Of a stretch of DNA of 64,000 nt, positions 1,820 to 62,505 are shown in pieces. The stretch spans positions 1,116,001-1,180,000 of the forward strand of contig NZ_CP047897.1 of assembly GCF_009913235.1 (NCBI RefSeq), written 5' to 3'. Numbering within the stretch: the first letter of the stretch is position 1; every line of letters starts with the position of its first letter. Under the pieces are notes generated by a model. The model searched no databases. It was given only the letters and a program-made list of their open reading frames with translations, and had not been told where the DNA came from. Both the position numbers and the translations under genes were made by a program. The DNA comes from Nibribacter ruber. Lineage in GTDB: Bacteria; Bacteroidota; Bacteroidia; Cytophagales; Hymenobacteraceae.

Positions 1820-1857
1820 CGTTTTTGGGCTGTTTTCTGGAAATAGGGTCAAAAACG
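1820..1857. repeat. Dispersed 38-bp palindrome, copy 1
   Basis: It has the outer ends CGTTTTT and AAAAACG with centre TTTTCTGGAAA. The inner arms are imperfect here (GGGCTG against AGGGTC). The core is extended by the private arms TTCTCT and AGAGAA, which are perfect complements. It lies between two genes on the same strand. Confidence 0.85.
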
Positions 1858-1909
1858 AGAGAATGACTATTTTGCTCAAGCATATTTCCAAACACGTAAA
1901 ACTTACCCT

Positions 1910-1917
1910 TATCTTTA
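1910..1917 (+). promoter_or_regulatory. Probable -7 box for the first ECF sigma operon
   Basis: TATCTTTA matches the Bacteroidota -7 consensus TAnnTTTG at seven of eight positions. A TTT at 1885-1887 lies about 22 bases upstream, as expected for the -33 element. The sigma gene starts 65 bases downstream. Confidence 0.45.
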
Positions 1918-1981
1918 AACCTCAGCCTTTACTACCCACGTCATAATCTTCGAATAACAAACAACGAATAACCAGCAACGA

Positions 1982-2521
1982 TTGGAAGACCACGAGATAC
2001 TAGCCAAATTCCAGAACCCGGATTCCCGGAACCTGGCCTTCAACCAACTGGTGCGCAAGTACCAGCAGAAGGTGTATTGGCATATCCGGAAGATGGTGGT
2101 GGACCATGATGACGCCGATGACCTGACGCAGGAAGTGTTCGTGAAAGTGTGGACCAACCTGGAGAATTTCCGGCAGGACGCTCAGCTCTACACCTGGATT
2201 TACCGCATCGCTACCAATGAGTGCCTCAACTTCCTGAACGCCAAAAAAAAGCGGTTCTTCCTGCCCATCCATGACGTGGCCGCCGAGCTCTCTGAGAAGC
2301 TGGACAACTCAGACACGTTGTCTGGCGATGAGATTCAACTGAAGCTACAGAAGGCCTTGCTGCGTCTGCCAGACAAGCAACGGCTGGTCTTTAACATGAA
2401 ATACTTTGATGAGCTCAAGTACGAGGAAATCTCGGAAATACTGGGCACCTCAGTGGGCGCTCTAAAGGCCTCGTATCACATTGCCGTGAAAAAAATTGAA
2501 GAGTTTTTGAAGACAGATTAA
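1982..2521 (+). CDS. ECF RNA polymerase sigma factor (sigma-70 family)
   Basis: This 179-residue protein has region 2 at about residues 22-90 (KMVVDHDDADDLTQEVFVKVW and YTWIYRIATNECLNFL) and region 4 at about 120-175 (LPDKQRLVFNMKYFDELKYEEISEILGTSVGALKASYHIAVKKI). It would direct RNA polymerase to a small stress regulon. TTG at 1982 is the only start that keeps the whole N-terminal helix; no in-frame ATG precedes region 2. The next two genes encode a one-TM anti-sigma-like protein and a Spy-like periplasmic protein. The same triplet recurs at 47820-49358 on the other strand, with clear sequence similarity (YTWIYRIATNECLNFL here, YTWLYRVATNECLRLL there). The target signal is unknown. Confidence 0.93.
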   Translation: MEDHEILAKFQNPDSRNLAFNQLVRKYQQKVYWHIRKMVVDHDDADDLTQEVFVKVWTNLENFRQDAQLYTWIYRIATNECLNFLNAKKKRFFLPIHDVAAELSEKLDNSDTLSGDEIQLKLQKALLRLPDKQRLVFNMKYFDELKYEEISEILGTSVGALKASYHIAVKKIEEFLKTD

Positions 2522-2556
2522 ACCCTGACCGGTAAAACGCATCTAATCCCTTGAGT

Positions 2557-3003
2557 ATGAAAGAAGAGTTTAACATAAACCGTTTACCCAAGCACCCCGG
2601 CTACCAGGTGCCAGAAGGCTACTTTGACAAGTTGCCCCTGCGCATCATGAAGAAGACGGCTTATGCCGCCCCGGTGGCAGAGCCGCTGAAAGCCTGGTTC
2701 TGGCAGTTGAAGACTGCCTTGGCTGGTCTGGGAATGGCCATGGTGTTCACGGCGGCTTTTCTCATCACGCAGTACACAGACCAGACCCTTTCCACGCAAG
2801 AGGCCATGGCGCAGGTGTCCCAGAAAGACATTTATCAATACCTGCTCAACAACGTGGAGCTGGAAACCTCAGATTTAGCTGAAGCCACCACGGTAAACCC
2901 CGTACAGACCCTGGAGTTCTATGACGTGCGCACCGAAGACGTGAGCGAGGTAGTCACCCAGGAACTGCTGGAAGAACAAATGACCACAACCCCTACTAAA
3001 TAA
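2557..3003 (+). CDS. Membrane-anchored anti-sigma-like protein
   Basis: This 148-residue protein has no characterised relative that I recognise. A cytoplasmic N-terminus (MKEEFNINRLPKHPGYQVP) is followed by one hydrophobic segment at about residues 52-72 (ALAGLGMAMVFTAAFLI) and an acidic periplasmic C-terminus. The opening motif recurs in the protein at 48274-48810 (MKEEFDFDKVGKQMPYHVP), which also directly follows an ECF sigma gene. By position and topology it should hold the upstream sigma factor at the membrane. ATG at 2557 is preferred over the TTG at 2551 because of that paralogue. It lies 2 bases from the next gene. Confidence 0.8.
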   Translation: MKEEFNINRLPKHPGYQVPEGYFDKLPLRIMKKTAYAAPVAEPLKAWFWQLKTALAGLGMAMVFTAAFLITQYTDQTLSTQEAMAQVSQKDIYQYLLNNVELETSDLAEATTVNPVQTLEFYDVRTEDVSEVVTQELLEEQMTTTPTK

Positions 3004-3005
3004 GA

Positions 3006-3467: not shown

Positions 3468-3489
3468 CATTTCGTTTGGTTTATTTTTT

Positions 3490-3517
3490 GAGAGGGAGGC
3501 TATATGGCCTCCCTCTC
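3490..3517 (+). terminator. Terminator of the first ECF operon
   Basis: GAGAGGGAGGC and GCCTCCCTCTC are perfect 11-bp arms around a 6-base loop. They are followed at once by GTTTTT, which is the left end of the next dispersed palindrome. The repeat therefore supplies the U tract. Confidence 0.85.
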
Positions 3518-3554
3518 GTTTTTAGCCTGTTTTCTGGGAAATTGCCCAAAAACG
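3517..3554. repeat. Dispersed 38-bp palindrome, copy 2
   Basis: It has CGTTTTT/AAAAACG ends and centre TTTTCTGGGAAA. The inner arms AGCCTG and TTGCCC pair imperfectly. It abuts the terminator hairpin of the ECF operon. Confidence 0.85.
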
Positions 3555-3610: not shown

Positions 3611-3618
3611 TATCTTTG
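3611..3618 (+). promoter_or_regulatory. -7 promoter box of the aminotransferase gene
   Basis: TATCTTTG is a perfect match to TAnnTTTG, 18 bases before the ATG at 3637. It overlaps an in-frame TTG at 3616, which rules that TTG out as the start of translation. A TTT at 3586-3588 is a plausible -33 element. Confidence 0.75.
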
Positions 3619-3636
3619 CGACTTAAATTGAATCCT

Positions 3637-4830
3637 ATGCTTTCTGCCCGTCAACTCTTTCTGCAACACCAGGCCCAAACCACAGACTTCCCGTTATTGT
3701 TAGAAGTAGAGCGGGCCGAGGGCGTGTTTATGTACGGGCCCAATGGGGAGCGGTACTTGGATCTGATTTCAGGCATTGGCGTGAGCAATGTGGGGCATCG
3801 GCATCCTAAAGTCATTTCTGCAATACAAGGCCAGTTAGACAAATACCTGCACTTGATGGTGTACGGTGAGATTGTGCAGACCCCGCCAGCCCGGTTGGCG
3901 CACGCGCTGGCGCAGACCTTGCCAGCGGGATTAGACAACGTGTATTTTGTGTCTTCGGGGAGCGAGGCGATAGAAGGAGCCATGAAACTAGCCAAGCGGT
4001 TTACTGGCCGGACAGAGCTGATTGCCTTTGACAAGGCCTACCACGGCTCCACGCAGGGATCGCTTTCCTTGAACGGGGCGGAGAGTTTCAAACGGTCGTT
4101 CAGGCCCTTGCTACCCGACGTCAATCACCTTGAGCACAACCATCTGCCAGACTTGGAGAAAATCACCCGAAGAACGGCAGCCGTCATTTTAGAAACAGTG
4201 CAGGGCGAGGCCGGCGTGCGCGTTCCCAGCAAAGCCTACATGCAGGCGCTGCGGGCCCGGTGCACGAAAGTGGGAGCCTTGCTAGTGCTGGATGAGATTC
4301 AATGCGGATTTGGCCGGACCGGTACGTTTTGGGCGTTTGAACAGTTTGGCATTGTGCCAGACATTCTCACCTGTGCCAAGGGTATGGGCGGCGGCATGCC
4401 CATTGGGGCGTTCATTTCCAGGCAGGAAATCATGCATAGCTTCAAGAATGATCCCATGCTGGGCCACATCACCACCTTTGGCGGGCACCCGGTTTCCTGC
4501 GCGGCTTCACTGGCCACCTTGCAGATTATTCAGGAAGAAGGCCTGCTGGAGCAAGTGACAGCCAAGGCCGAGCGCTTCAAGCAACGGTTGGCCCACCCGG
4601 CCATCAAGAGCATCCGGAACCTGGGTTTGATGATGGCCGCCGAGATGGAGTCTTTTGAGGTCTTGAAGAAAGTCATTGACACGGCCATCTTAAAGGGTGT
4701 TCTAACGGACTGGTTCTTGTTCTGCGACAATTCCATGCGCCTGGCCCCGCCTTTGACCATCACGTTTGAAGAGATTGACCAGGCCTGCGACATTCTGCTG
4801 GAGGCCATTGATGAGCATTGCCGTTTTTAG
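3637..4830 (+). CDS. Class III pyridoxal-phosphate aminotransferase
   Basis: This 397-residue protein has acetylornithine/ornithine aminotransferase style (ArgD/RocD/GabT clan). The cofactor-site features are VSSGSEAIEGAMKLAKR (about residues 105-121), the Asp in LLVLDEIQCGFGRTG and the Schiff-base Lys in LTCAKGMGGGMPIGAF. The exact amino donor cannot be told from sequence, and no arginine genes are nearby. The start is fixed by the promoter box that ends at 3618. The stop codon TAG at 4828-4830 lies inside a dispersed palindrome copy, so the last residues (Cys-Arg-Phe) are partly encoded by the repeat. Confidence 0.9.
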   Translation: MLSARQLFLQHQAQTTDFPLLLEVERAEGVFMYGPNGERYLDLISGIGVSNVGHRHPKVISAIQGQLDKYLHLMVYGEIVQTPPARLAHALAQTLPAGLDNVYFVSSGSEAIEGAMKLAKRFTGRTELIAFDKAYHGSTQGSLSLNGAESFKRSFRPLLPDVNHLEHNHLPDLEKITRRTAAVILETVQGEAGVRVPSKAYMQALRARCTKVGALLVLDEIQCGFGRTGTFWAFEQFGIVPDILTCAKGMGGGMPIGAFISRQEIMHSFKNDPMLGHITTFGGHPVSCAASLATLQIIQEEGLLEQVTAKAERFKQRLAHPAIKSIRNLGLMMAAEMESFEVLKKVIDTAILKGVLTDWFLFCDNSMRLAPPLTITFEEIDQACDILLEAIDEHCRF

Positions 4831-4859
4831 GCTATTTTCTGGAAAAGAAGGCAAAAACG
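4822..4859. repeat. Dispersed 38-bp palindrome, copy 3, overlapping a stop codon
   Basis: The CGTTTTTAG left end encodes Arg-Phe-stop of the aminotransferase. The inner arms are imperfect (AGGCTA against GAAGGC), with centre TTTTCTGGAAAA and right end AAAAACG. Confidence 0.83.
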
Positions 4860-6753: not shown

Positions 6754-6791
6754 CGTTTTTGGGCTGTTTTCGCTAAAAGAAGCCAAAAACG
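6754..6791. repeat. Dispersed 38-bp palindrome, copy 4
   Basis: It starts 5 bases after the permease stop, with CGTTTTT and AAAAACG ends. The inner arms GGGCT and AGCC pair, and the centre is changed to CGCT. Confidence 0.82.
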
Positions 6792-9279: not shown

Positions 9280-9317
9280 CGTTTTTGGGTTATTTTCTAG
9301 AAAATAACCCAAAAACG
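9280..9317. repeat. Dispersed 38-bp palindrome, copy 5 (perfect)
   Basis: This is a perfect palindrome with inner arms GGGTTA/TAACCC and centre CTAG. It is extended by the private arms CCGCCT (9274-9279) and AGGCGG (9318-9323), giving 50 bp of unbroken symmetry. It lies between the convergent genes pfkA and miaA. Confidence 0.93.
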
Positions 9318-9353: not shown

Positions 9354-9391
9354 CGTTTTTAGCCATTTTCTCAGGAAACAAGCTTAAAACG
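9354..9391. repeat. Dispersed 38-bp palindrome, copy 6
   Basis: It lies 36 bases after copy 5, in the same convergent gap. It has left end CGTTTTT, centre TTTTCTCAGGAAA and right end TTAAAACG. The inner arms are AGCC and AGCT, so it is more worn than copy 5. Confidence 0.78.
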
Positions 9392-19885: not shown

Positions 19886-19923
19886 CGTTTTTGGCCTGAT
19901 TCTTAGAAAACAGGCCAAAAACG
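19886..19923. repeat. Dispersed 38-bp palindrome, copy 7
   Basis: The inner arms GGCCTG/CAGGCC are intact and the centre is ATTCTTAGAAAA. It is extended by the private arms AACGCCC (19879-19885) and GGGCGTT (19924-19930). It lies between convergent genes. Confidence 0.9.
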
Positions 19924-23801: not shown

Positions 23802-25088
23802 ATGAGGAAAGCACTTCTGGCCATCCTGATTGTAGGGAGCACCTCGTTTTTCGCTTCTTTTGGCCAAAATACGCCAAAAACGGATTCCATCTTTGTGTTG
23901 CGCCCAGACCGAGTATTTGACGGCCAGGACCTGCACCAAGGCTGGGTGGTGGTAGTAAAAGGCGACCGCATCCTTTCGGCGGGGCCGAGCAATAAAGTCT
24001 CCCTTCCGGCCAATGCCCGGACCATTTCCTTGCCCGGTCAGACCCTAATGCCCGGACTCATTGAAGGCCACTCTCATTTGCTGCTGCACCCCTACAATGA
24101 AACCTCCTGGAACGACCAGGTTTTGAAAGAGGCAGACGCCCTGCGTGTGGCCCGGGCCACAGTGCACGCCCGCAACACGCTCCTGGCCGGTTTTACCACC
24201 GTGCGGGACCTGGGCTCTGAAGGCGCCGAGTATGCAGACGTGGGCCTGAAGCAAGCCATAGACCAGAACATCATTCCGGGCCCCAGAATGCTGGTGGCGG
24301 GCAAAGCCATCATTGCCACCGGCAGCTACGGCCCCAAAGGATTTGACCCCGCGTTTGAAGTGCCCCAAGGTGCAGAATCCGCCGACGGCGTGGACAACCT
24401 CATACGCGTGGTACGCGACCAGATAGGCAAGGGCGCCGACATCATCAAAGTCTACGCCGACTACCGCTGGGGACCAAACGGAGAAGCCATGCCTACGTTT
24501 ACTGTGGACGAACTTAAACTGATGGTGGAAGTAGCCAAAAGCAGCGGCCGGCCGGTAGTGGCCCATGCCAGCACTCCAGAAGGCATGCGCCGCGCCGCCG
24601 AAGCAGGCGTAGAAACCATTGAACACGGGGACAACGGCACTCCAGAAGTCTTTAAATTAATGGCGAAGAAAGGCGTTGCCCTCTGCCCTACCGTGGCCGC
24701 CGGCGATGCCATTTTGCAGTACAGCGGTTGGCGCAAAGGCCAGGACCCAGAGCCAGCCCGCATCGCGCAGAAGAGAGCCAGCCTCAAAGCCGCCCTGGCC
24801 GCCAAAGTGCCGCTGTGCGTGGGTGGTGACGTAGGCGTGTTTCCGCATGGTGAGAATGCCCGCGAACTAGAATTATTGGTAGACTACGGAGTGGCACCAT
24901 TGGACGTACTGAGAGCCGCCACCGCCGGCAATGCCAAGTTGTTCCATCTGGACCAAAAACTGGGACGGGTGCAAGACGGCTTGTTAGCTGATCTGGTGTC
25001 AGTGGAAGGCAATCCTTTACAAGACATGACCACCCTTAGAAAAGTTAAGTTGGTCATGAAGGGCGGCGTCCTTTACAAGCAACCCTAA
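23802..25088 (+). CDS. Secreted amidohydrolase (imidazolonepropionase-related)
   Basis: This 428-residue metal-dependent hydrolase has a signal peptide (MRKALLAILIVGSTSFFASF). Metal ligands are visible in MPGLIEGHSHLLLH (HxH), a Lys-like region in GADIIKVYADYRW, VVAHASTPEG and VETIEHGDNG, and a late Asp in CVGGDVGVFPHGEN. Related proteins act as peptidases on Xaa-Pro or cyclic dipeptide-like substrates. Unusually, codons about 15-27, across the signal peptide end (TSFFASFGQNTPKT), coincide with a 38-bp sequence matching the dispersed palindrome. Another perfect copy with a T tract follows the stop. Confidence 0.9.
   Translation: MRKALLAILIVGSTSFFASFGQNTPKTDSIFVLRPDRVFDGQDLHQGWVVVVKGDRILSAGPSNKVSLPANARTISLPGQTLMPGLIEGHSHLLLHPYNETSWNDQVLKEADALRVARATVHARNTLLAGFTTVRDLGSEGAEYADVGLKQAIDQNIIPGPRMLVAGKAIIATGSYGPKGFDPAFEVPQGAESADGVDNLIRVVRDQIGKGADIIKVYADYRWGPNGEAMPTFTVDELKLMVEVAKSSGRPVVAHASTPEGMRRAAEAGVETIEHGDNGTPEVFKLMAKKGVALCPTVAAGDAILQYSGWRKGQDPEPARIAQKRASLKAALAAKVPLCVGGDVGVFPHGENARELELLVDYGVAPLDVLRAATAGNAKLFHLDQKLGRVQDGLLADLVSVEGNPLQDMTTLRKVKLVMKGGVLYKQP
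23845..23882. repeat. Dispersed 38-bp palindrome inside a coding sequence
   Basis: It is exactly 38 bases between CGTTTTT and AAAAACG, with partly matching inner arms (CGCTTC, TACGCC) and TTTT/AAAA spacing kept; the centre is GGCC. It encodes the end of the amidohydrolase signal peptide. Either an insertion has been tolerated in this flexible region, or the match is by chance. Confidence 0.6.
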
Positions 25089-25106: not shown

Positions 25107-25168
25107 ACAACCGCCTGTCGTTTTTGGGCTACTTCTTGGAAAAGAGCCCAAAAACGACAGGCGGTTGT
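25107..25168. terminator. Long terminator built around a dispersed palindrome
   Basis: The private arms ACAACCGCCTGT (25107-25118) and ACAGGCGGTTGT (25157-25168) flank the 38-bp core and are followed by TTTTTATC. Here the whole structure is a genuine terminator for the amidohydrolase gene. Confidence 0.85.
25119..25156. repeat. Dispersed 38-bp palindrome, copy 8
   Basis: It has CGTTTTT/AAAAACG ends, inner arms GGGCT/AGCCC and centre TTCTTGGAAAA. It forms the core of the amidohydrolase terminator. Confidence 0.9.
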
Positions 25169-25664: not shown

Positions 25665-25702
25665 CGTTTTTTGGCTGTTTTCCGGAAATCTGGCCAAAAA
25701 CG
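25665..25702. repeat. Dispersed 38-bp palindrome, copy 9
   Basis: It has CGTTTTT/AAAAACG ends, with one extra T displacing the left inner arm (TGGCTG against CTGGCC) and a symmetric centre CCGG. It lies 3 bases beyond the stop of the DUF2461 gene. Confidence 0.85.
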
Positions 25703-27290: not shown

Positions 27291-27328
27291 CATTTTTGTC
27301 CTGAACTCCTGAAAACAACCCAAAAACG
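27291..27328. repeat. Dispersed 38-bp palindrome, copy 10
   Basis: The right end CCCAAAAACG is intact and the left end is worn (CATTTTT), with centre CTCCTGAAAA. It lies between convergent units, 9 bases from the stop of the anti-sigma relic. Confidence 0.7.
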
Positions 27329-28846: not shown

Positions 28847-28884
28847 CGTTTTGGGGCTGTTTTCCAGAAAATAGTCCAAAAACG
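28847..28884. repeat. Dispersed 38-bp palindrome, copy 11
   Basis: It has CGTTTT and AAAAACG ends with centre TTTTCCAGAAAA. The inner arms GGGGCTG and ATAGTCC pair poorly. It lies between convergent genes. Confidence 0.8.
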
Positions 28885-31379: not shown

Positions 31380-31417
31380 CGTTTTTCGCCTTATTTCCAG
31401 AAAACAGTTTAAAAACG
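31380..31417. repeat. Dispersed 38-bp palindrome, copy 12
   Basis: It has CGTTTTT/AAAAACG ends, inner arms CGCC/GTTT that no longer pair, and centre TTTCCAGAAAA. It lies 9 bases after the stop of the anti-sigma gene, the same spacing as at the relic (27291-27328). Confidence 0.8.
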
Positions 31418-33095: not shown

Positions 33096-34475
33096 ATGGC
33101 TATACAAACCATCAACCCCTATACCAACCAAGTAGTCAAAGACTTTGAGCCCGCCAGCGCCCAACAAGTAGAAAAAGTGCTACAGACGGCAGAAGACACG
33201 TTCCAGTCCTGGCGTAGCACCCACTTTGACCACCGCGCCCAGCTCATGCACAAGGCCGGCCAGGAACTGGAAAACCGCACCAACCATTACGCCCGCCTCA
33301 TCTCCCTGGAAATGGGCAAGCCCCTTAAACAAGCCCGCTCCGAAGTCCAGAAATGCGCCAAGGTGTGTCATTATTATGCAGACCACGCCCAGGAGTTTCT
33401 GCAAGACGAGGACATTGCCACAGACGCCACGCGCAGCTTCATTAGCTATGAACCCATGGGTGTGGTACTGGCCGTCATGCCCTGGAACTTCCCGTTCTGG
33501 CAGGTGTTTAGGTTTGCGGCCCCGGCTCTCATGGCGGGCAACGTGGGCATTTTAAAGCACGCCTCCAACGTGCCACAATGCGCCCTCGCCATTCAGGAAG
33601 TGTTTGAAAACGCCGGCTTCCCGAAGGGTTGTTTCCAGTCCTTGCTCATTGGTTCTAAGGAAGTAGACGCGCTCATCAAAGACCCGCGCATTAAGGCGGT
33701 CACGCTTACGGGCAGCGAAGGCGCCGGCGCCAAGGTGGCCTCCACGGCCGGGCAGGAAATCAAGAAGACAGTGCTGGAACTGGGCGGATCAGATGCGTTC
33801 ATAGTTCTAGCTGATGCAGACATTGACGCCGTTTCTGAGAAAGCCGTGCAGGCCCGCCTCATCAACACGGGGCAAAGCTGCATTGCCGCCAAACGCTTTA
33901 TCATTGAGCAGTCCATTGCCGAGCCGTTTTTGGCCGCTTTTTCTGAAAAGATGCAAAAACTGAAAACCGGCAACCCGCTGGAGGACGAAGACATTGACTA
34001 TGGCCCTCTGGCGCGGGTTGACCTGGCCCAGGAACTCACAGACCAGGTAGAGCGCTCTATCCAAGCCGGCGCGAAACTCTATCTGAAAGGCGGCCAGAAG
34101 GACAAAGACAGCGCCGTTTTCCATCCCGCCATTCTCACGCACATTGAAAAAAGAAACCCCGCCTACGAGGAAGAGTTCTTCGGGCCAGTGGCGCTGGTGT
34201 TCATTGCCCAGGACGCCGAGGACGCCATCAGGATTGCCAATGACTCTCCCTTTGGCCTGGGCGGCTCCATCTGGACCAAAGACATTAAGCGCGGGCAGGA
34301 ACTGGCCAGGAAAGTAGAGGCTGGGGCTGTGTTTGTGAACGCCGTGGTGGCCTCAGACCCTGCCCTGCCGTTTGGCGGCATCAAGAAATCTGGCTACGGC
34401 CGCGAGCTTTCTTATGTGGGCATCCGGGAGTTTGTAAACCAAAAAACCATCTGGGTGAGTACGCCTCAGGAATAG
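33096..34475 (+). CDS. NAD(P)-dependent aldehyde dehydrogenase, succinate-semialdehyde type
   Basis: This 459-residue enzyme has GVVLAVMPWNFPFWQVFRF (cofactor site, about residue 130), the catalytic Glu in VLELGGSDAFIVL (about 230) and the catalytic Cys in NTGQSCIAAKRF (about 264). It is closest in style to the Sad/GabD short form (EEEFFGPVALVF near the C-terminus). ATG at 33096 (MAIQTINPYT) is the family start; the open frame extends upstream with unconserved sequence. Its stop overlaps the end of the convergent YdcF-like gene by 10 bases. A palindrome-like sequence at 33925-33962 falls on EPFLAAFSEKMQK. Confidence 0.94.
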   Translation: MAIQTINPYTNQVVKDFEPASAQQVEKVLQTAEDTFQSWRSTHFDHRAQLMHKAGQELENRTNHYARLISLEMGKPLKQARSEVQKCAKVCHYYADHAQEFLQDEDIATDATRSFISYEPMGVVLAVMPWNFPFWQVFRFAAPALMAGNVGILKHASNVPQCALAIQEVFENAGFPKGCFQSLLIGSKEVDALIKDPRIKAVTLTGSEGAGAKVASTAGQEIKKTVLELGGSDAFIVLADADIDAVSEKAVQARLINTGQSCIAAKRFIIEQSIAEPFLAAFSEKMQKLKTGNPLEDEDIDYGPLARVDLAQELTDQVERSIQAGAKLYLKGGQKDKDSAVFHPAILTHIEKRNPAYEEEFFGPVALVFIAQDAEDAIRIANDSPFGLGGSIWTKDIKRGQELARKVEAGAVFVNAVVASDPALPFGGIKKSGYGRELSYVGIREFVNQKTIWVSTPQE

Positions 34476-35230
34476 CCCAGTAGTTTGTAGGTAAGAACGC
34501 CTACCCATTCATGAAGGAGGCGGGTCCAGTCCTGGAGAGCCTCGGCAGAAGGGATGAGCAGATCATCCAAATGGAAACTCCTATCGTGGGTCTGGAAATC
34601 GGCGGGAAACGTGTCGAAGTTCAGGCCCACTTTTTCAAAGCATGCTTGAGCCCGCCGCATGTGAAACGCCGATGTAATGAGCAGCAGCCTCTGCAGTTCT
34701 GGGTGTTGGCTTAGCAGCTCCTTGGTGTACAAAGCATTTTCTCTGGTGTTGCGGCTGCGCTGCTCTATTAGGATGTCCTGCTTCGGCACCCCGGCATACA
34801 AGGCGGTCTGTTCCAGGTTTTCGGCCTCTGTCCTGACCACGTCCTTGATGGCTCCAGAACCACCCGTGATGATGATCTTTTGCACGCGCCCCATCTTGTA
34901 CAGTTGCACGGCATCCAGAATCCGTTCGGCGCCTTCGTTAAAATGCACCCGGTCATGCGGCGATCTGTTCACCTCTGTCACGCCCGTGAGCACAATGGCT
35001 GCATCATAGTTTTTGACGTCTTTCATCAAAACCGCCTCGGGCTCCCAGGCCAGCCACACCTCATTGGAGATAAACGGATTTGAAAAGAAGAACAGCAGCA
35101 CCAACCCCACCCGGAACGCCCATCTTTTTTTCCCCTGATTCCTGGAAAACAGGCCAAAAACGAAAACCGCCATGATCCAGAGAAACGGCGAGGTGAGGTA
35201 CTGCAACAATTTTGAGAGAATGAAAAACAT
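34466..35230 (-). CDS. YdcF/DUF218-family membrane protein (ElyC/SanA-like)
   Basis: This 254-residue protein has two hydrophobic segments at the N-terminus (about residues 13-31 and 40-58) and a DUF218 domain. The domain is marked by YDAAIVLTGVTE (about 81), IIITGGSG, the SRNTRENALYT signature and LLITSAFHMRRAQACFEKVG. Relatives ElyC and SanA act in envelope integrity. ATG at 35230 is chosen because it puts the first TM at the usual place. Residues about 23-35 (VFGLFSRNQGKK), the loop after the first TM, are encoded by a copy of the dispersed palindrome. Confidence 0.87.
   Translation of the reverse strand: MFFILSKLLQYLTSPFLWIMAVFVFGLFSRNQGKKRWAFRVGLVLLFFFSNPFISNEVWLAWEPEAVLMKDVKNYDAAIVLTGVTEVNRSPHDRVHFNEGAERILDAVQLYKMGRVQKIIITGGSGAIKDVVRTEAENLEQTALYAGVPKQDILIEQRSRNTRENALYTKELLSQHPELQRLLLITSAFHMRRAQACFEKVGLNFDTFPADFQTHDRSFHLDDLLIPSAEALQDWTRLLHEWVGVLTYKLLGYS
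35125..35162. repeat. Dispersed 38-bp palindrome inside the YdcF-like gene
   Basis: CTGGAAAACAGGCCAAAAACG matches the full right half; the left half has become TTTTTTTCCCCTGATTC. It encodes the loop after the first membrane segment, a place that tolerates insertion. Confidence 0.75.
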
Positions 35231-35599: not shown

Positions 35600-35637
35600 C
35601 GTTTTTGGCTTGTTTTCTGGGAAACAGGCCAAAAGCC
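35600..35637. repeat. Dispersed 38-bp palindrome, copy 13
   Basis: CGTTTTTGGCTTG is intact, the centre is TTTTCTGGGAAA and CAGGCC is intact. The last bases read AAAAGCC instead of AAAAACG, because they merge into the next hairpin. Confidence 0.82.
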
Positions 35638-36072: not shown

Positions 36073-36110
36073 CGTTTTTGACCTTCTTTCCAGAGAATAA
36101 GCCAAAAACG
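36073..36110. repeat. Dispersed 38-bp palindrome, copy 14
   Basis: It has CGTTTTT/AAAAACG ends, imperfect inner arms (GACCTT against AAGCC) and centre TTTCCAGAGAA. It lies beyond the stop of topB. Confidence 0.82.
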
Positions 36111-36148: not shown

Positions 36149-38617
36149 TTAGTCAAACAGATACACTACTTTAAACTCCTCATTCAACTTTAGGGCGGCG
36201 TCAAAGCTGTTGCCGGTTTTAGGGGAAATGAAGCCTTTGATTTTAGCGGTCTTGCCTTTGGTGAGCAAGGCCGAGAGGTGGCTTTCGCTTAAAGTGCGGC
36301 CGTGTAGTTCAAAGGGAACTACAAATTGACAGCCCTCTTTGTAGCGGCTGCAACCGTAGGCACTTTTGCCTTTGAGCATCTGGCCCTGCTGGCATTTGGG
36401 GCAGATCCAGACGGAGGGCTTTTTAGTTTTGGGCTCGGCCTTTTCTGCATGAAGGGCAAAGGCGGCATCCAGCTGAAGGGCGCCGTCAAATTTTTCACCG
36501 GAGGAAGCGTCTACCAATCCTTTGATTACCGGGGTTTTGCCTTTCTTGAGCAGGGCCTGCACGTGCTTTTCGGTGAGGGGTTTGCCATGAGTTTGCATAG
36601 GCAGTCTGAACTGGCAGCCTTCCTTGAACCGCACGCAGCCGTATGCCTGGCTACCCTTAACCACGTGACCGGTTTTACAGACGGGACAAGTACCCAATCC
36701 AGCAGCAGCAGGAGCCGATCCGTTTTTGGCCTCTTTTTTGGGTTTTGCGTCTTTTTTAGCGCCGTCTTTGGGGACAGGTTTAGTGAGTTCCATGGGTTGC
36801 AAAGTGACGGACGCTCTGTCTTGCTTTACCTCCTGCACCATCTCCTCTACCAACTGCTGCAACTCGCGCAGAAACTCGGTGGCTTCAAATTCACCGGCTT
36901 CAATCTGGCGAAGTTTCTTTTCCCATTGGCCCGTCATCTCCGCAGATTTAAGGGTAGGGTTTTTAATCACCTGAATCAGGTCAATGCCGGTTTGGGTGGG
37001 AAGGATTTTCTTCTTCTCCTTCCGGATGTAGTTGCGTTTGAAAAGCGTCTCAATGATGGCGGCACGGGTAGACGGCCGGCCAATGCCGTTTTCTTTGAGC
37101 GCTTCTTTCAGTTCGTCATCATCTACCTGCTTGCCGGCGGTTTCCATGGAGCGCAACAAAGTGGCCTCAGTGTAGTCTTTGGGCGGACTGGTCATTTTAC
37201 GCTCCAGCAAAGGGCTATGCGGACCACGCTCGCCGGCATCAAAATGCGGAAGCACCGCCAACTCCTCTTCCTTCTCCTCTCCATCCATTGTGGTCTTGGG
37301 AGCAGTGGGTTTGGCAGGCGTTTTGGTTTCTTCCTGGGCGTACACCACGCGCCAGCCGGGCTCTAGAATTTGCTTGCCTTTGGCCCTGAACGCATGGTTA
37401 GCCGCCTCGCCGCTCACCACCGTATTGCTCACAATACAGTCTGGGTAAAAGGCGGCAATAAAGCGCTTGGCCACCAGGTCAAACACTTTTGCCTCTGTGC
37501 CAAACAAATTACCCGAAGTCGCTCCCGTAGGAATGATAGCGTGGTGGTCTGTGACTTTGTTGTTGTTAAAAACTTTGGCGCTCTTTCTGATCTTCTTTCC
37601 TTGTAGTTCCTGCATCAAATGGCTGTACTCGCGCAAGCCGGTCAAGATGTTAGGAATCTTGGGATAGATGTCATCTGGCAAATAGGTAGTGTCTACCCTT
37701 GGATAGGAAACTACTTTTTTCTCATACAGACTTTGCACGGTTTTAAGCGTCTCATCTGCAGACATGGCAAACTTGTTGTTGCACTCCACCTGCAGAGAGG
37801 TCAGGTCAAAAAGCCGCGGAGAACTTTCGGTGCCTTTCTTGGTCTCTACGTCCTTGATTTCAAACTCAGACGGTTTGATTTGTTCCAGAATGGCCAAGGC
37901 TTTTTCTTCGTCTTTGAACCGCCCGTTGGTGCTGCTAAACGTCACGTCACGGTATACGGTCTTAAGTTCAAAGAAGGGCTCTGGCTTGAAGTTGAGAATT
38001 TCCAGGTGGCGCTGCACAATCATGGCCAGCGTAGGCGTTTGCACACGGCCCAAGGAAAGGAGCTGACGGCCTTGCGCATACTTCAAAGTAAATAGGCGCG
38101 TGGCGTTGATGCCTAGTAGCCAATCACCAATGGCGCGGCTTCTGCCGGCTTGGTACAACTGGTCAAATTCCTTGCCATCGCGCAGCTTAGAAAACCCCTG
38201 CCGAATGGCTTCTTCGGTGAGCGAAGAAATCCAGAGACGCTTGACGGGTTTGCGGCAGCGCGCCTGATACAAGACCCACCGCTGAATCACTTCTCCCTCC
38301 TGCCCGGCATCACCGCAATTGATCACTTCCTCAGCGCCGTCTATCAATTGCTTGATGACTTTAAACTGCTGGGCCACGCCTTTGTTCTGAATGAGTTTGA
38401 TGTCAAACTTTTCGGGCACCAAGGGGAGGTCTGGCAGATGCCAGCGTTTCCAGTGGGGGTTGTAATCATCTGGTTCGTTGAGTTGGCAGAAGTGCCCGAA
38501 CGTCCAGGTGACCTGGTAGCCATTGCCTTCAAAATAACCGTCTTTCCGGCTATTGGCTCCAATCACATGGGCAATTTCACGGGCTACGCTGGGTTTTTCG
38601 GCAATGCAGACTTTCAA
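36149..38617 (-). CDS. topB: DNA topoisomerase III (type IA)
   Basis: This 822-residue protein relaxes and decatenates DNA through a 5'-phosphotyrosine. It has a Toprim domain at 1-150 (MKVCIAEKPSVAREIA and INCGDAGQEGEVI) and a central domain with the active-site Tyr in VVSYPRVDTTYLPDD (about residue 307). A Lys-rich linker (about 625-650) precedes two tandem C-terminal modules of about 85 residues. Each module starts with CPxCxxG and a zinc-finger-like CxxxxEGCQF and ends in a GKTxxIKG stretch. The canonical Toprim DxDREGE reads DAGQEGE, so the second Asp and the Arg are replaced. The start is TTG at 38617, which gives the conserved MKVCIAEKPS. Confidence 0.93.
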   Translation of the reverse strand: MKVCIAEKPSVAREIAHVIGANSRKDGYFEGNGYQVTWTFGHFCQLNEPDDYNPHWKRWHLPDLPLVPEKFDIKLIQNKGVAQQFKVIKQLIDGAEEVINCGDAGQEGEVIQRWVLYQARCRKPVKRLWISSLTEEAIRQGFSKLRDGKEFDQLYQAGRSRAIGDWLLGINATRLFTLKYAQGRQLLSLGRVQTPTLAMIVQRHLEILNFKPEPFFELKTVYRDVTFSSTNGRFKDEEKALAILEQIKPSEFEIKDVETKKGTESSPRLFDLTSLQVECNNKFAMSADETLKTVQSLYEKKVVSYPRVDTTYLPDDIYPKIPNILTGLREYSHLMQELQGKKIRKSAKVFNNNKVTDHHAIIPTGATSGNLFGTEAKVFDLVAKRFIAAFYPDCIVSNTVVSGEAANHAFRAKGKQILEPGWRVVYAQEETKTPAKPTAPKTTMDGEEKEEELAVLPHFDAGERGPHSPLLERKMTSPPKDYTEATLLRSMETAGKQVDDDELKEALKENGIGRPSTRAAIIETLFKRNYIRKEKKKILPTQTGIDLIQVIKNPTLKSAEMTGQWEKKLRQIEAGEFEATEFLRELQQLVEEMVQEVKQDRASVTLQPMELTKPVPKDGAKKDAKPKKEAKNGSAPAAAGLGTCPVCKTGHVVKGSQAYGCVRFKEGCQFRLPMQTHGKPLTEKHVQALLKKGKTPVIKGLVDASSGEKFDGALQLDAAFALHAEKAEPKTKKPSVWICPKCQQGQMLKGKSAYGCSRYKEGCQFVVPFELHGRTLSESHLSALLTKGKTAKIKGFISPKTGNSFDAALKLNEEFKVVYLFD

Positions 38618-38646
38618 GGTATTTCAGGGAAAACAGGTCAAAAACG
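38609..38646. repeat. Right half of a dispersed palindrome at the topB start
   Basis: AGGGAAAACAGGTCAAAAACG is the conserved right half. The expected left half is topB coding sequence, so the element sits over the translation start region. Confidence 0.6.
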
Positions 38647-42973: not shown

Positions 42974-43011
42974 CGTTTTTAGGCTCTTTTCTGGGATTTA
43001 GATTAAAATCA
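42974..43011. repeat. Left half of a dispersed palindrome
   Basis: CGTTTTTAGGCTCTTTTCTGGGA matches the left half and centre. The right half has decayed to TTTAGATTAAAATC. It lies 3 bases beyond the stop of the sensor kinase gene. Confidence 0.6.
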
Positions 43012-45175: not shown

Positions 45176-45213
45176 CGTTTTTGGCCTCTTTTCCAGGAAA
45201 CAGGCTAAAAACG
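45176..45213. repeat. Dispersed 38-bp palindrome, copy 15
   Basis: It has CGTTTTT/AAAAACG ends, inner arms GGCCT/AGGCT and centre TTTTCCAGGAAA. It lies between the exporter stop and the regulator start on the same strand. Confidence 0.87.
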
Positions 45214-46632: not shown

Positions 46633-46670
46633 CGTTTTTGGCCTCTTTTCCAGGCAACAAGCCAAAAACG
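46633..46670. repeat. Dispersed 38-bp palindrome, copy 16
   Basis: It has CGTTTTTGGCCTC and GCCAAAAACG, with centre TTTTCCAGGCAA. This is one of the few copies between divergent genes, where a terminator role makes little sense. Confidence 0.85.
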
Positions 46671-47710: not shown

Positions 47711-47749
47711 TATTACTACCGTGATCGTCATGTAAGGCGAGGACATAAA

Positions 47750-47813
47750 GAGGCCCGGCTGCCGTTTTTGGCTTGTTTTCTGGAAAACAAGCCAAAAACG
47801 GCAGCCGGGCCTC
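47750..47813. terminator. 64-bp near-perfect palindrome between convergent genes
   Basis: The private arms GAGGCCCGGCTGC (47750-47762) and GCAGCCGGGCCTC (47801-47813) extend the 38-bp core on both sides without a mismatch. It ends 6 bases before the stop of the Spy-like gene. No long T run follows, but the stability alone could stop polymerase. Confidence 0.75.
47763..47800. repeat. Dispersed 38-bp palindrome, copy 17
   Basis: The core has inner arms GGCTTG/CAAGCC, a covaried form of GGCCTG/CAGGCC, and centre TTTTCTGGAAAA. The ends are CGTTTTT and AAAAACG. Confidence 0.95.
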
Positions 47814-47819
47814 TTGGGT

Positions 47820-48810: not shown

Positions 48811-49358
48811 ACTTCCTGCAGCATAAACGCCTTCACCTTGGTGCTGGCGTGGTGGTAATTGGTTTTAAGCGAAGACACAGAACTGTCCAGTATTTTGCTG
48901 ATCTCTTCATACGGCAGCTCATCATAGTACCGAAGCGTAAACACCAGGCGCTGCTTTTCTGGCAGGCGCAGAATGGCTTCCTGCAGCTGCACCAGAATCT
49001 TTTCTTCCTGGTTGGGAGCAGTGGTGCTCTGCAGGGAGTCAATCAGTTTTTCGCTGATTTCCTCAAAAGAGCCCAAAAACCGCTTGCGCTCCCGCAGCAG
49101 CCGGAGGCACTCATTAGTGGCCACCCGGTACAGCCAGGTATAGAGCTTGCTGTCACCGGTAAAGGTGTGCAGGTGCCGGTACACGTTGATAAACGTTTCT
49201 TGCAATAGGTCCTGGGCGTCTTCATGGGTCACCACCAGGCGCCGTATGTGCCAGTACATGCGGGCGCTGTAGGTATCCATCAACAAGGTAAAGCCCTTGT
49301 CTTTGGTACGCGCCTCCTTGAACAAGGACAGGATCTGCTCATCTGTTGGCTCACGCAT
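48807..49358 (-). CDS. ECF sigma factor (second operon)
   Basis: This protein of about 183 residues has region 2 with LVVTHEDAQDLLQETFINVYRHL and YTWLYRVATNECLRLLRERK, and region 4 with LPEKQRLVFTLRYYDELPYEEISKILDSSVSSLKTNYHHA. It is closely related to the factor at 1982-2521. ATG at 49358 (MREPTDEQIL) matches the paralogue best; an upstream ATG at 49376 is possible. The linker KRFLGSFEEISEKLIDS is encoded by DNA that resembles the dispersed palindrome (49044-49081). Confidence 0.93.
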   Translation of the reverse strand: MREPTDEQILSLFKEARTKDKGFTLLMDTYSARMYWHIRRLVVTHEDAQDLLQETFINVYRHLHTFTGDSKLYTWLYRVATNECLRLLRERKRFLGSFEEISEKLIDSLQSTTAPNQEEKILVQLQEAILRLPEKQRLVFTLRYYDELPYEEISKILDSSVSSLKTNYHHASTKVKAFMLQEV

Positions 49359-50246: not shown

Positions 50247-50284
50247 GGATTACTTCGCAAGCGAACTAACAAAAAAACGCCCTT

Positions 50285-50322
50285 CGTTTTTGGCTTGTTT
50301 TCTCAGAAACTGGCCAAAAACG
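50285..50322. repeat. Dispersed 38-bp palindrome, copy 18
   Basis: It has CGTTTTTGGCTTG and TGGCCAAAAACG, centre TTTTCTCAGAAA. Near-complementary outer arms (CGCCCTT and AAGAGCG) extend it, and a TTTTT run follows. It lies between convergent genes. Confidence 0.87.
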
Positions 50323-50352
50323 AAGAGCGTTTTTCAAACAGAACAACGGCTT

Positions 50353-50926: not shown

Positions 50927-50964
50927 CGTTTTTTGGCTGTTTTCTGGAAAAGTGGCTAAAAACG
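50927..50964. repeat. Dispersed 38-bp palindrome, copy 19
   Basis: It has CGTTTTT with one extra T and a TAAAAACG end, centre TTTTCTGGAAAA, and short inner arms (GGCTG against AGTGGC). It lies between two genes of the same strand, 23 bases from the acetyltransferase stop. Confidence 0.83.
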
Positions 50965-59715: not shown

Positions 59716-59736
59716 ACCTACCAACTTACCTGCCTT

Positions 59737-60049: not shown

Positions 60050-60067
60050 TCGTTGATTAAAGCTATT

Positions 60068-60105
60068 CGTTTTTGGCTTCTTTTCTGGAAAACAAGCCAA
60101 AAACG
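60068..60105. repeat. Dispersed 38-bp palindrome, copy 20
   Basis: It has CGTTTTTGGCTTC and CAAGCCAAAAACG with centre TTTTCTGGAAAA. It lies 8 bases from the GH20 stop, between convergent genes. Confidence 0.93.
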
Positions 60106-60113
60106 GCAACTCC

Positions 60114-62420
60114 TTACCGCTGCCACCAACTCTGCGGAATGGGTTGAGGCTGGCTGCCATCTTTGCTATAGAGCAGTTTAAGGGTGTACCCGCCACCGCC
60201 TTCAATGAAGTCCAGGGCGAAGGGTTGCAGCCCTTTCTCCAGGGCCACTTGTCCACTTTTTTCTAGAGGCGCATGCAGGCCGTCATTGTCTACCACCAAC
60301 CGGTTGGCAATTTTAAGGACGCCTCCATCATCACAGGTCAGGTAAAAGCTGTAGATCCCCGGTTCAGGAATGTTTAGATACCCCTTAAACTGCACGCCGA
60401 AGCTCCCGTCCTTTATTGTCTCCGGCACTTTTAACATTTCTACCGTCATCGTTTCGGTTGGCTTTGCAACTGACTGCATTGCCTGGGTATTTTTGAAAAA
60501 GCCTTTGTAGTAGGTGGCCGTCAACCCCGGAATGGTTTTAAGAGGTTTAATGGCAGGTGCCAAAGTCTGCTTTTCATAGGCTATCGTATAGGTATCTCCC
60601 ATTCGACCTTCCGGGGAAAAAGCGGCTACCTGGAGGGTCATTGATTCGGTGATCTCCAGAGGTTTTTCCAGTAATGTGGAGGTTTGGTGGGGCGTGCTTC
60701 CATCTGTAGTGTACCTGATGTTCAGGCTTTCCAAAGGCTTTTGGATAGTTAACACAGCTTTGTCAGTGAACACCATGCGGTCGGTGAAACCTTCCAAATC
60801 TGGCAGGCGGTAGTGCACATTCAACGCATCCAAGCGAGGGTAATGGTTCTTTAGGCGGTTCAGATAGTTGCCATAGTTCCTTTCTTTAGACCAGACGGCT
60901 TCAGAGAGGGCAGTCATGCGGGGCATGTACAGATACTCGGCACGGTTTTCAGAAGGAACATACTCGGTCCAGAGGTTGGCTTGGGCTCCCAGGATGGCCT
61001 TTGCTTCTTGATTGTTCAAACCCCTGGGCACCACTTGCAACTGGTACACGTTTTGGAGGGAGTTTTTGTCTGGTAGCGCATCAAAATACAGCGGCGCGTT
61101 GGGCGTCATGATGACTTTGTTGCCGTTTTGCGCGGCCAATAACGGGGCATTGGGAACCCAGTTGCGCCAAAACATGACCACCGCCTCAGAATTAATGCCT
61201 CCTTCCAGCACCTCGTCCCAGCCAATGAGGGTTTTGCCTTTGCTTTTGAAGAACTTCTGCATGCGGTATACAAAATAGCTCTGCAATTCCTCCACAGTTT
61301 TAAGGCCTTCGCGCTGCATCAATTCCTGACAAGCCGGCGCATTGGCCCAGGTGGTTTTCTCTACTTCATCGGCACCCAGGTGAATGTATTGACTGGGGAA
61401 GAGGTCTATGATTTCCTGAAAGACGTTTTCTGCGAAGGTATAGGTGCTTTCCTCACAGGGGCAGATAGGCACTGAAAACGTCTTGCCCCAACCCGCCTCT
61501 CCGCAGGTAAGGAACGGATAGGCGTCAATGGCCGCCTTCATGTGGCCGGGCATGTCTATTTCCGGGATGATCTCAATGTGTCTAGCCGATGCGTATTGTA
61601 TAATCTCCCGCATCTCGGCCTGGGTATAAAAGCCCCCGTACAGCGTTTTGCCGTCTTTTTGAAGGATGTGCCGTGGGTCTAGCGCCAGGTCTGGATTCCC
61701 TTTTGACATTTTGATGACCGCTGAGTCCTGGTTGTTGAAGGTGCGCCAGGCGCCTTGCTCCGTCAGTTTGGGGTATTTCTTTATTTCCAGACGCCAGCCC
61801 TGGTCATCGGTGAAGTGCAGGTGTAGTTTGTTGAACTTGTAAAGCGCCAGCACGTCTATGTACTTCTTCAGATAAGCGGTGGTGAAGAAATGCCGGGACA
61901 CGTCTAAATGCATTCCGCGCCAGCCAAACGCAGGAGCATCTTGTATCTGAACGGCCGGCAGTACCAGTGCGCCAGCAGTAACGCCGGCCCGCTCTATAGA
62001 GGCGGGTAACAACTGCCGAAGCGTCTGCACCGCCCTGAACATGCCCGCGGGCTCCCTGGCCACTAGTTTTACCTGCGTTGGTGAAATGAGAACTTGGTAG
62101 CCTTCGGGCGCGGAAATATGTTTATCAAGTAGCAGAATCACGGCATTGGAGGTCTCCCTCTTGACCAGTTTCAAAGGCCTTCCCAGGCTTCTGGAAAATA
62201 ACAGTTGCACCTGCTCTACTTCGTTCTGGAAGACTTTACTTTCCCTGGGCACCACCAGCTTGGTTTGGGCCGTCACCGTGAAGCTTCCTTGCTGAGGCAC
62301 CAGCGCGTTAGGATACGGAATGAGGTTGTAGGTATTCTCTGAGGCCTGACCAAAACAGACGCCAGCACCCAATACCATAGATCCAAACAAGAAGAAGAGG
62401 GGGAGAATTTTTTTCATCAT
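60114..62420 (-). CDS. GH20 beta-N-acetylhexosaminidase with PA14-like domain
   Basis: This 768-residue secreted enzyme has a signal peptide ending near residue 24 (GAGVCFG-Q). An N-terminal GH20b domain (30-150) is followed by the catalytic barrel (155-510) with the Asp-Glu pair in YIHLGADEVEKTTWANAP, and a chitobiase-type C-terminal domain (540-610, IRYTTDGSTPHQ). A PA14-like sugar-binding domain follows (625-760, FKGYLNIPEPGIYSFYLTCDDGG). It removes terminal GlcNAc or GalNAc by substrate-assisted catalysis and completes the antenna-trimming set. Confidence 0.94.
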   Translation of the reverse strand: MMKKILPLFFLFGSMVLGAGVCFGQASENTYNLIPYPNALVPQQGSFTVTAQTKLVVPRESKVFQNEVEQVQLLFSRSLGRPLKLVKRETSNAVILLLDKHISAPEGYQVLISPTQVKLVAREPAGMFRAVQTLRQLLPASIERAGVTAGALVLPAVQIQDAPAFGWRGMHLDVSRHFFTTAYLKKYIDVLALYKFNKLHLHFTDDQGWRLEIKKYPKLTEQGAWRTFNNQDSAVIKMSKGNPDLALDPRHILQKDGKTLYGGFYTQAEMREIIQYASARHIEIIPEIDMPGHMKAAIDAYPFLTCGEAGWGKTFSVPICPCEESTYTFAENVFQEIIDLFPSQYIHLGADEVEKTTWANAPACQELMQREGLKTVEELQSYFVYRMQKFFKSKGKTLIGWDEVLEGGINSEAVVMFWRNWVPNAPLLAAQNGNKVIMTPNAPLYFDALPDKNSLQNVYQLQVVPRGLNNQEAKAILGAQANLWTEYVPSENRAEYLYMPRMTALSEAVWSKERNYGNYLNRLKNHYPRLDALNVHYRLPDLEGFTDRMVFTDKAVLTIQKPLESLNIRYTTDGSTPHQTSTLLEKPLEITESMTLQVAAFSPEGRMGDTYTIAYEKQTLAPAIKPLKTIPGLTATYYKGFFKNTQAMQSVAKPTETMTVEMLKVPETIKDGSFGVQFKGYLNIPEPGIYSFYLTCDDGGVLKIANRLVVDNDGLHAPLEKSGQVALEKGLQPFALDFIEGGGGYTLKLLYSKDGSQPQPIPQSWWQR

Positions 62421-62467
62421 ACTACGGTCCTTATCAGAAGGTCAAAAGTACACAGTAAAATAAAAAC

Positions 62468-62505
62468 CGTTTTTAGCCTCTTTTCAGGAAAACAGGCTAA
62501 AAACG
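62468..62505. repeat. Dispersed 38-bp palindrome, copy 21
   Basis: The inner arms AGCCT/AGGCT are a covaried form, the centre is TTTTCAGGAAAA and the ends are CGTTTTT and AAAAACG. It lies between GH20 and cutC on the same strand. Confidence 0.92.

What the first reader, a model, noticed from the sequence alone, without database searches (positions are those of the whole stretch)
1820..62505. A dispersed 38-bp palindrome family with 21 full intergenic copies in 64 kb
Nearly every gap of this window carries a 38-bp unit with fixed ends CGTTTTT and AAAAACG, inner arms near GGCCTG/CAGGCC, a TTTT/AAAA step and a CTGG-like centre. Length is constant to the base in all copies. The T run comes first and the A run last, which is the opposite polarity to an intrinsic terminator, so the fixed sequence is not explained by termination alone. 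Candidates are a REP-like element moved by a RAYT-type transposase, a site for a DNA-bending or nucleoid protein, or a 3' UTR stabiliser. No RAYT gene is in the window.
Basis: partly seen in the sequence, partly recalled or inferred. Interest (0 to 1): 0.92.

Follow-up and report, generated by a model that had tools for sequence, protein, structure and literature searches.

The report
Gene-end 38-bp palindromes in Rufibacter
Bacteria of the genus Rufibacter carry the same 38-letter mirror-image DNA mark after a large share of their genes, held in place while each species spells it in its own dialect, which points to an unknown protein that marks where transcription units end.

Summary
Observation confirmed: 21 copies with at most one mismatch in the 14 end letters, 27 by weight matrix. 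The own genome (G000, Rufibacter) has 1135 exact-end copies, reversed control 2; about 1740 by extrapolation.

REP/RAYT is not supported: sister species G007 has 687 exact copies and no Y1 transposase hit. In 97 orthologous G000/G007 gaps the element is in both 54 times, one only 5, neither 38; its place differs by a median of 2 nt, the most fixed columns are kept, free columns are nearly saturated. These are old sites under selection.

All 15 sampled Rufibacter genomes have 300-750 per Mb with a species-specific consensus, often in the same gaps; 188 genomes of five other genera are at background. Rigid spacing, and no arm covariation in 308 of 353 copies, point to duplex DNA, not an RNA hairpin; 45 copies sit in longer covarying stems.

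In gaps of 80-199 nt it occurs in 42 of 52 convergent, 84 of 169 tandem, 1 of 17 divergent (pooled). Best reading: a bidirectional gene-end boundary bound by an unidentified protein dimer. Protein and termination are inferred.

The parts
1820..1857 (.). 38-bp element, exact ends
   Evidence: also in the orthologous gap of G007
3490..3517 (+). terminator-like hairpin whose U tract is the element's own T run (position read from the sequence; the end may be off by a base or two)
   Evidence: -23.6 kcal/mol
3517..3554 (.). 38-bp element, exact ends
4822..4859 (.). 38-bp element, exact ends, overlaps the stop codon of the ORF 3616-4830; same overlap in G007
6754..6791 (.). 38-bp element, exact ends
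9280..9317 (.). 38-bp element, exact ends, perfect palindrome
9354..9391 (.). 38-bp element, 1 end mismatch
19886..19923 (.). 38-bp element, exact ends
23845..23882 (.). 38-bp element, exact ends; G007 has one in the orthologous gap
25107..25168 (.). 12-bp flanking stem around the element, T run after it: element in the loop of a terminator-like hairpin
25119..25156 (.). 38-bp element, exact ends
25665..25702 (.). 38-bp element, exact ends
27291..27328 (.). 38-bp element, 1 end mismatch
28847..28884 (.). 38-bp element, 1 end mismatch
31380..31417 (.). 38-bp element, exact ends
33925..33962 (.). weak copy (29.7 bits) inside an ORF
35125..35162 (.). copy with 2 end mismatches; absent from the G007 gap, which shows no terminator either
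35600..35637 (.). copy with 2 end mismatches
36073..36110 (.). 38-bp element, exact ends
38609..38646 (.). weak copy (19.5 bits); homologous stretch kept in G007 below the cut
42974..43011 (.). degraded copy (30.7 bits); G007 has a strong copy in the orthologous gap
45176..45213 (.). 38-bp element; the same gap carries a copy in G007, G005, G014 and G008 and weak ones in G009 and G015, each in its own spelling
46633..46670 (.). 38-bp element in a divergent gap
47748..47815 (.). 15-bp flanking stem around the element
47763..47800 (.). 38-bp element, exact ends
49044..49081 (.). weak copy (26.7 bits) inside an ORF
50273..50334 (.). 12-bp flanking stem around the element; the orthologous G007 gap has an ordinary bidirectional intrinsic terminator instead
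50285..50322 (.). 38-bp element, exact ends
50927..50964 (.). 38-bp element, exact ends
60068..60105 (.). 38-bp element, exact ends
62468..62505 (.). 38-bp element, exact ends

Best explanation
The 38-bp palindrome is a duplex-DNA recognition site for an unidentified, genus-specific protein that binds as a symmetric dimer (or dimer of dimers). It sits just after the ends of roughly half of the genes that are followed by a real gap, and acts, with equal effect from both sides, as a transcription boundary: a bound roadblock that stops or pauses RNA polymerase, alone, with Rho, or merged with an intrinsic hairpin. Site and protein specificity drift together, which gives each species its own dialect at the same old places. 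SHOWN: a fixed-length symmetric site; place at gene ends and near-absence from short divergent gaps; conservation at orthologous places; dialect drift across the genus; no selection for arm pairing in most copies; a genome rich in copies without a Y1 transposase hit. INFERRED: the protein, its binding, and the termination or roadblock effect.
For: Orthologous gaps G000/G007: 54 both, 5 in one only, 38 neither (odds ratio 513); 47 single-copy pairs differ in distance from the nearest gene end by a median of 2 nt (uniform placement: 47); the most fixed columns are 0.96-1.0 identical, several free columns are no more alike than between unrelated copies (position 13: 0.43 against 0.42; position 11: 0.57 against 0.54), whole element 0.81 against 0.78, flanks 0.37-0.40 against 0.26. 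Fifteen genomes, non-independent pairs: 144 both, 20 discordant, 60 neither. Dialects in the same gaps. Rigid length: 262 of 264 in G000, 91 of 91 in G007, 43 of 43 in G013. No arm covariation in 308 of 353 copies: 4281 paired cells against 4299 expected. Mirrored half sites with T/A tracts one helical turn apart and a TG/CA centre; 6 solo half sites against 354 full sites in 964 kb. Place, my pooling: gaps of 80-199 nt carry a copy in 42 of 52 convergent, 84 of 169 tandem and 1 of 17 divergent cases; 64 of 292 copies lie 0-9 nt after a stop; no orientation bias. Gene ends with a gap of 60 nt or more and an element within 160 nt: 221 of 379 in G000, 75 of 165 in G007; such ends have an independent intrinsic terminator less often (60 of 296 against 85 of 248, p 3e-4). 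Both convergent gaps with a copy in one species only carry a bidirectional intrinsic terminator in the element-free species.
Against: No protein was identified and no transcript 3' ends were available. The element alone is not a standard intrinsic terminator. In the pooled cross-species test, element-free gaps whose ortholog has an element do not have more terminators (2 of 7 against 19 of 62), so the exchange evidence rests on two gaps and on the within-genome anticorrelation, which may partly reflect lack of space. In one of those two gaps the element-bearing species also has a terminator on one strand, and the one clear tandem loss (window 35125) has no terminator on the element-free side. 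Near-absence from tandem gaps under 40 nt (2 of 131) proves little, because such a gap cannot hold 38 bp. 42 of 93 divergent gaps of 200 nt or more carry a copy (pooled). In G004 divergent gaps are as rich as tandem ones (2.32 and 2.28 per kb, convergent 1.66). In G000 the site holds 51 bits where about 11 would suffice to find it, more than a plain binding site needs. Weak-dialect species (24-34 bits) tolerate 37 bp (7 of 50 in G004).
Confidence: 0.5

Rival explanations
1. Nucleoid or supercoiling site: the element is the loading site of an architectural protein or a topoisomerase that relieves torsion where transcription units end, as gyrase and IHF do at BIMEs (recalled); termination is not its job.
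For: Density order convergent > tandem > divergent in G000 (3.78, 2.55, 1.30 per kb of gap); phased T/A tracts and a TG/CA step at the dyad suggest bending; about 400 per Mb.
Against: Copies hug stop codons (64 of 292 within 0-9 nt), closer than a topology site needs; anticorrelation with intrinsic terminators. G004 does not show the convergent excess (1.66 against 2.28 tandem).
Confidence: 0.2
2. DNA-uptake watermark: a sequence accumulated by biased uptake and recombination, like the DUS and USS of Neisseriaceae and Pasteurellaceae.
For: Thousands of copies (extrapolated), species dialects, more information than location needs, link to terminator stems, one stray copy in another genus; DUS show dialects and inverted pairs at terminators (PMC3630211, passages read).
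Against: Single half sites are almost absent (6 against 354 full), whereas a single DUS is enough for uptake (recalled); few copies lie in coding DNA (10 of 246 placed copies in G000, 0.019 per kb), whereas intragenic DUS are common; the preference for gene ends over short divergent gaps is unexplained.
Confidence: 0.12
3. RNA hairpin at transcript 3' ends (terminator or stabiliser).
Against: The other 308 copies show no arm covariation (Z -1.0); centre length is rigid; no T tract is conserved after the 38 bp; at -9 kcal/mol the upstream hairpin count is 11 against 6 and 8 shuffled.
Confidence: 0.12
4. Mobile REP or MITE-like family moved by a RAYT-type or other transposase.
For: High copy number, palindrome, extragenic place; three Y1_Tnp hits in G000, one of them apparently between two strong copies (L070: 1325 and 2074).
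Against: No Y1_Tnp hit in G007; conservation at orthologous places with nearly saturated free columns; 263 distinct sequences among 265 copies; at a mean spacing of about 2.5 kb copies on both sides of a gene are common.
Confidence: 0.05

Closest known systems
REP/BIME elements (GTAG class with RAYT transposases; CGTC class without a known transposase)
   Same: Short high-copy extragenic palindromes, many downstream of genes; suggested roles in termination, mRNA stability and supercoiling; the CGTC class has been reported from Bacteroidetes (PMC3733652, abstract and passages)
   Different: No GTAG or CGTC tag, symmetric ends, a copy-rich genome without a Y1 transposase hit, kept at orthologous places, species dialects at the same gaps, no hairpin selection in most copies
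DNA uptake sequence dialects (Neisseriaceae)
   Same: Thousands of copies, species dialects, link to terminators (PMC3630211, abstract and passages)
   Different: 38-bp obligate double site, not a short single word; almost no single half sites; nearly absent from coding DNA in G000; tied to gene ends
Roadblock terminators of eukaryotes (Reb1 sites in yeast; TTF-I sites recalled)
   Same: A sequence-specific bound protein ends transcription at gene ends (the inferred working mode; the papers, e.g. PMC9371891, were seen only as a search listing with abstract starts)
   Different: No protein known here; bacterial; palindromic, so direction-neutral; found after about half of the gene ends that have a gap
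Intrinsic terminators
   Same: Place after stop codons; 45 of 353 copies are wrapped in a stem of 7 bp or more
   Different: Fixed sequence and length, T run before and A run after the palindrome, no covariation in the other 308 copies

Membership tests
REP (GTAG or CGTC class) | Tetranucleotide tag GTAG or CGTC at one end | tested here: not met
   Symmetric CGTTTTT/AAAAACG ends. Matrix of 191 copies: C 0.88, G 0.93, T 0.94, T 1.00 at the first four positions, so no CGTC; beyond the 38 bp only a weak Y/R preference at the next base (123 exact-end copies)
REP (GTAG class) | RAYT (Y1_Tnp) gene in the genome | tested here: not met
   15 of 16 genomes have a hit, but G007, second in copy number, has none at E <= 0.001. 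This feature does not apply to the CGTC class, which lacks a known transposase
REP (GTAG or CGTC class) | Mobility: presence/absence with exact boundaries | tested here: not met
   54 shared, 5 discordant of 97 gaps between two species; in two of the discordant ones the homologous stretch is kept in both. No strain-level comparison was made
DNA uptake sequence | Single copies of the word, common in coding DNA | tested here: not met
   6 solo half sites against 354 full; 0.019 copies per kb of predicted coding DNA in G000
DNA uptake sequence | Raises transformation | not testable with these tools
   Needs an experiment
Intrinsic terminator | Paired stem (covarying arms) followed by a U tract | tested here: not met
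   Not met in 308 of 353 copies; stem covariation met in 45; 5 or more T in the 7 nt after the stem in 11 of 90 stem sides, 29 of 616 sides of copies without a stem
Roadblock terminator | Bound protein stops RNA polymerase | not testable with these tools
   No protein known; only place and site anatomy fit
Protein-binding site (dimer) | Fixed spacing, independent half sites, symmetric consensus | tested here: met
Known RNA family | Match to an Rfam model | tested here: not met
   0 matches in the window at gathering threshold

The most novel reading that the evidence does not exclude
Rufibacter bounds a large share of its transcription units with a dedicated DNA-bound roadblock protein at one to three thousand palindromic sites per genome (extrapolated): a bacterial counterpart of eukaryotic roadblock termination that arose in one genus, partly stands in for intrinsic terminators, and whose protein and sites have drifted together through several dialects without losing the sites' places.
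Probability: 0.33. Interest if true: 0.93.

Novelty: categorically new. Interest (0 to 1): 0.82.

Why it matters
If true, bacteria have a third, protein-marked way to end transcription units, next to intrinsic and Rho-dependent termination, and it can be studied as a natural experiment: 15 sampled genomes show the sites moving together from one spelling to another while staying in place. That makes the co-evolution of a global DNA-binding protein with its sites directly measurable. Even if the role is architectural, a 38-bp site with 51 bits of information at the gene ends of a single genus is unexplained by the families I compared it with.

Tried and rejected
RAYT-driven mobility, rejected on G007 and on orthologous conservation. 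RNA-hairpin role for the whole family, rejected on covariation and rigid length, kept for 45 of 353 copies. Hairpin plus the element's own T run as a general terminator: 9 of 201 gene sides only. Pooled terminator exchange across species: no effect. Mutual information gave unstable z values for near-invariant columns and is not used. Compensatory double changes: small excess only, 254 against 230.5 expected in weak-dialect species and 253 against 242.5 in strong ones. Element in other genera and one other family: seven genomes sampled, 416 kb; only the known copy in G035 is clear (43 bits); G035 and G027 each give one further marginal hit (6.5 and 11.1 bits against reversed controls of 4.6 and 4.4). 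The gene next to the G035 copy has no match in 16 Rufibacter genomes, so its source is unknown. One search used a mis-typed pattern (36 bp instead of 34) and says nothing about the family; one search replaced it. Literature: searches naming Rufibacter or Hymenobacteraceae listed 2, 1 and 1 papers, with one or two mentions of the repeat term each except Hymenobacteraceae itself (9); I saw listings only and none has such an element in title or abstract start. Broader searches listed nothing on it either. The library holds open-licence PMC papers only.
Full report
THE OBSERVATION. The window is positions 1116001-1180000 of a 4.35-Mb single-contig genome, G000. With the centre allowed to vary from 22 to 26 nt, 18 copies with exact ends are found, all 38 bp, none in 100 shuffles. 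A symmetric weight matrix finds 27 at 18 bits or more, none in the reversed sequence, and scores are bimodal. Genome-wide there are 1135 exact-end copies, reversed-pattern control 2 (the list of places was cut, the count is whole). In 664 kb of G000 there are 265 copies, i.e. about 1740 per genome by extrapolation.

WHICH ORGANISM. A strict version of the motif found only three stretches in genome contigs, in Rufibacter immobilis and R. ruber; the own genome may be left out there. G005 contig C10 has the length of the R. immobilis record NZ_RJJE01000017.1. The genus is therefore Rufibacter, by inference; the species of G000 is not known to me.

ANATOMY. Consensus in G000: CGTTTTT-GGCCTG-TTTT-CYRG-AAAA-CAGGCC-AAAAACG. 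The T and A tracts are centred at about 5, 15.5, 23.5 and 34, so the two tracts of each half lie one helical turn apart. The centre prefers CCAG (50) and CTGG (47) over CTAG (11) and CCGG (5) in 184 copies. Two half sites must stand together: 6 solo half sites against 354 full sites in 964 kb of G000 and G007. With the centre allowed to vary by 3 nt either way, 262 of 264 copies in G000, 91 of 91 in G007, 43 of 43 in G013, 17 of 17 in G005 and 67 of 72 in G006 are 38 bp; in weak-dialect species 37 bp is tolerated (7 of 50 in G004, 5 of 40 in G009, 3 of 15 in G003) (the half models were trained on 38-bp hits). The site holds 51 bits where about 11 would locate it.

PLACE. My pooling of the three stretches (two of G000, one of G007). 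Gaps of 80-199 nt, which all have room, carry a copy in 42 of 52 convergent, 84 of 169 tandem and 1 of 17 divergent cases. Convergent gaps of 80 nt or more: 71 of 92. Divergent gaps of 200 nt or more: 42 of 93. Tandem gaps under 40 nt: 2 of 131, but these cannot hold 38 bp. 64 of 292 copies lie 0-9 nt after a stop, 198 of 292 lie 0-59 nt after it. The centre shows no bias relative to transcription (36/32 against 33/34). Of gene ends followed by a gap of 60 nt or more, 221 of 379 in G000 and 75 of 165 in G007 have an element within 160 nt. In G000 10 of 246 placed copies lie in predicted coding DNA. The order of densities varies among species; in G004 divergent gaps are as rich as tandem ones. 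Gene calls are mine (codon-model ORFs), not a published annotation.

CONSERVATION. G000 against G007 (median 88% protein identity): in 97 orthologous gaps the element is in both 54 times, G000 only 4, G007 only 1, neither 38. In 47 single-copy pairs the distance to the nearest gene end differs by a median of 2 nt (47 expected for uniform placement). The most fixed columns stay fixed (0.96-1.0); several free columns (10, 11, 13, 17, 28) are about as different as between unrelated copies, others (1, 8, 19, 20) keep some likeness; the whole element is 0.81 identical against 0.78 for unrelated copies, flanks 0.37-0.40 against 0.26. Of the five discordant gaps two are homologous stretches kept in both species, one below the cut; both discordant convergent gaps have a bidirectional intrinsic terminator on the element-free side, and in one of them the element-bearing species also has a terminator on one strand; the remaining tandem one has none.

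THE GENUS. With species-specific matrices all 15 sampled Rufibacter genomes (of 16 held; G012 was not sampled) have 300-750 copies per Mb. Samples were only 17-20 kb for eight of them, and in nine the cut lies one bit above the best reversed-sequence score at 11-19 bits, so some weak hits may be false. The spelling differs by species: G013 CGTTTTCGGGCTCATTTC, R. immobilis YGTTTAGGGGCTGTTTTT, G006 YGTTTTRRGCCYGTTTTC. Pooled over species pairs (not independent): both 144, discordant 20, neither 60. In the shared gaps printed, 8 of 8 copies from species with a model score best under their own dialect; over all copies 261 of 265, 15 of 17, 63 of 67 and 41 of 43 do, but the models were trained on these copies. 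The relaxed G000 pattern gives 11-1357 matches in 16 of 16 Rufibacter (control 0-3) and 0-6 in 188 genomes of five other genera (control 0-10). A foreign dialect in those genera would be missed by that pattern; a looser seeded search of 416 kb from seven genomes outside the genus found nothing clear but one copy. That copy lies in G035, another genus, 3 nt after a small ORF.

MECHANISM. A neutral or mobile repeat does not keep its place and its fixed columns while its free columns nearly saturate. A RAYT is not needed: no Y1_Tnp hit in G007. A rigid double site with independent halves is what a symmetric protein complex needs. Its place after genes, its near-absence from short divergent gaps, its merging with stems in convergent gaps, and fewer independent intrinsic terminators at element-bearing gene ends (60 of 296 against 85 of 248; mid-gene background 44 of 531) point to a role in ending transcription. 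Against this, the pooled cross-species exchange test is flat. A Rho domain hit is present in 16 of 16 genomes, so the element does not go with loss of Rho. I rate the DNA-site part at about 0.75 and the transcription-boundary part at about 0.5.

COMPARISON. REP elements are tagged with GTAG or CGTC at one end; GTAG REPs are linked to RAYTs, CGTC REPs lack a known transposase and occur in Bacteroidetes too (PMC3733652, passages). DNA uptake sequences show dialects and inverted pairs at terminators, but intragenic copies are common (PMC3630211, passages). Reb1 roadblock termination in yeast was seen only as search listings; TTF-I and the binding of gyrase and IHF at BIMEs are from memory. The 'categorically new' rating rests on failing these membership tests and on a limited literature search; if a REP-like class were defined broadly as any high-copy gene-end palindrome, this would be a new variant of that.

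Noticed in passing
L110:7562 (G035, another genus of the family): A single strong copy (46 bits under the G000 matrix) 3 nt after a small ORF (110 aa) that has no match in 16 Rufibacter genomes; origin unknown.
   Followed up: partly
G000:C1:957022-957104: An 83-nt tandem gap almost identical between G000 and G007, with a degenerate copy, while many other gaps aligned are diverged; perhaps a structured leader or small RNA.
   Followed up: no
samples of G013 (100 kb) and G006 (200 kb): A second palindromic repeat family around CGGCCGACGGCC/AGGCCGTCGGCC: 14 and 12 counts in G013, 11 and 11 in G006.
   Followed up: no
samples of G005 (R. immobilis), 119 kb: Interspersed words GACTCGCGCCAG (9), GACGCTCGCAGG (9) and CCCCCTTTGAAG (14), several close to elements.
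   Followed up: no
L070:1325 and 2074 (G000 near 1739310): One of the three Y1_Tnp hits apparently lies between two very strong copies of the element; expected by density, but worth a look.
   Followed up: no
G009, G004, G003, G014, G015: Weak-dialect species (24-30 bits) hold some perfect individual palindromes, and several tolerate 37 bp; may show the origin or the decay of the system.
   Followed up: partly
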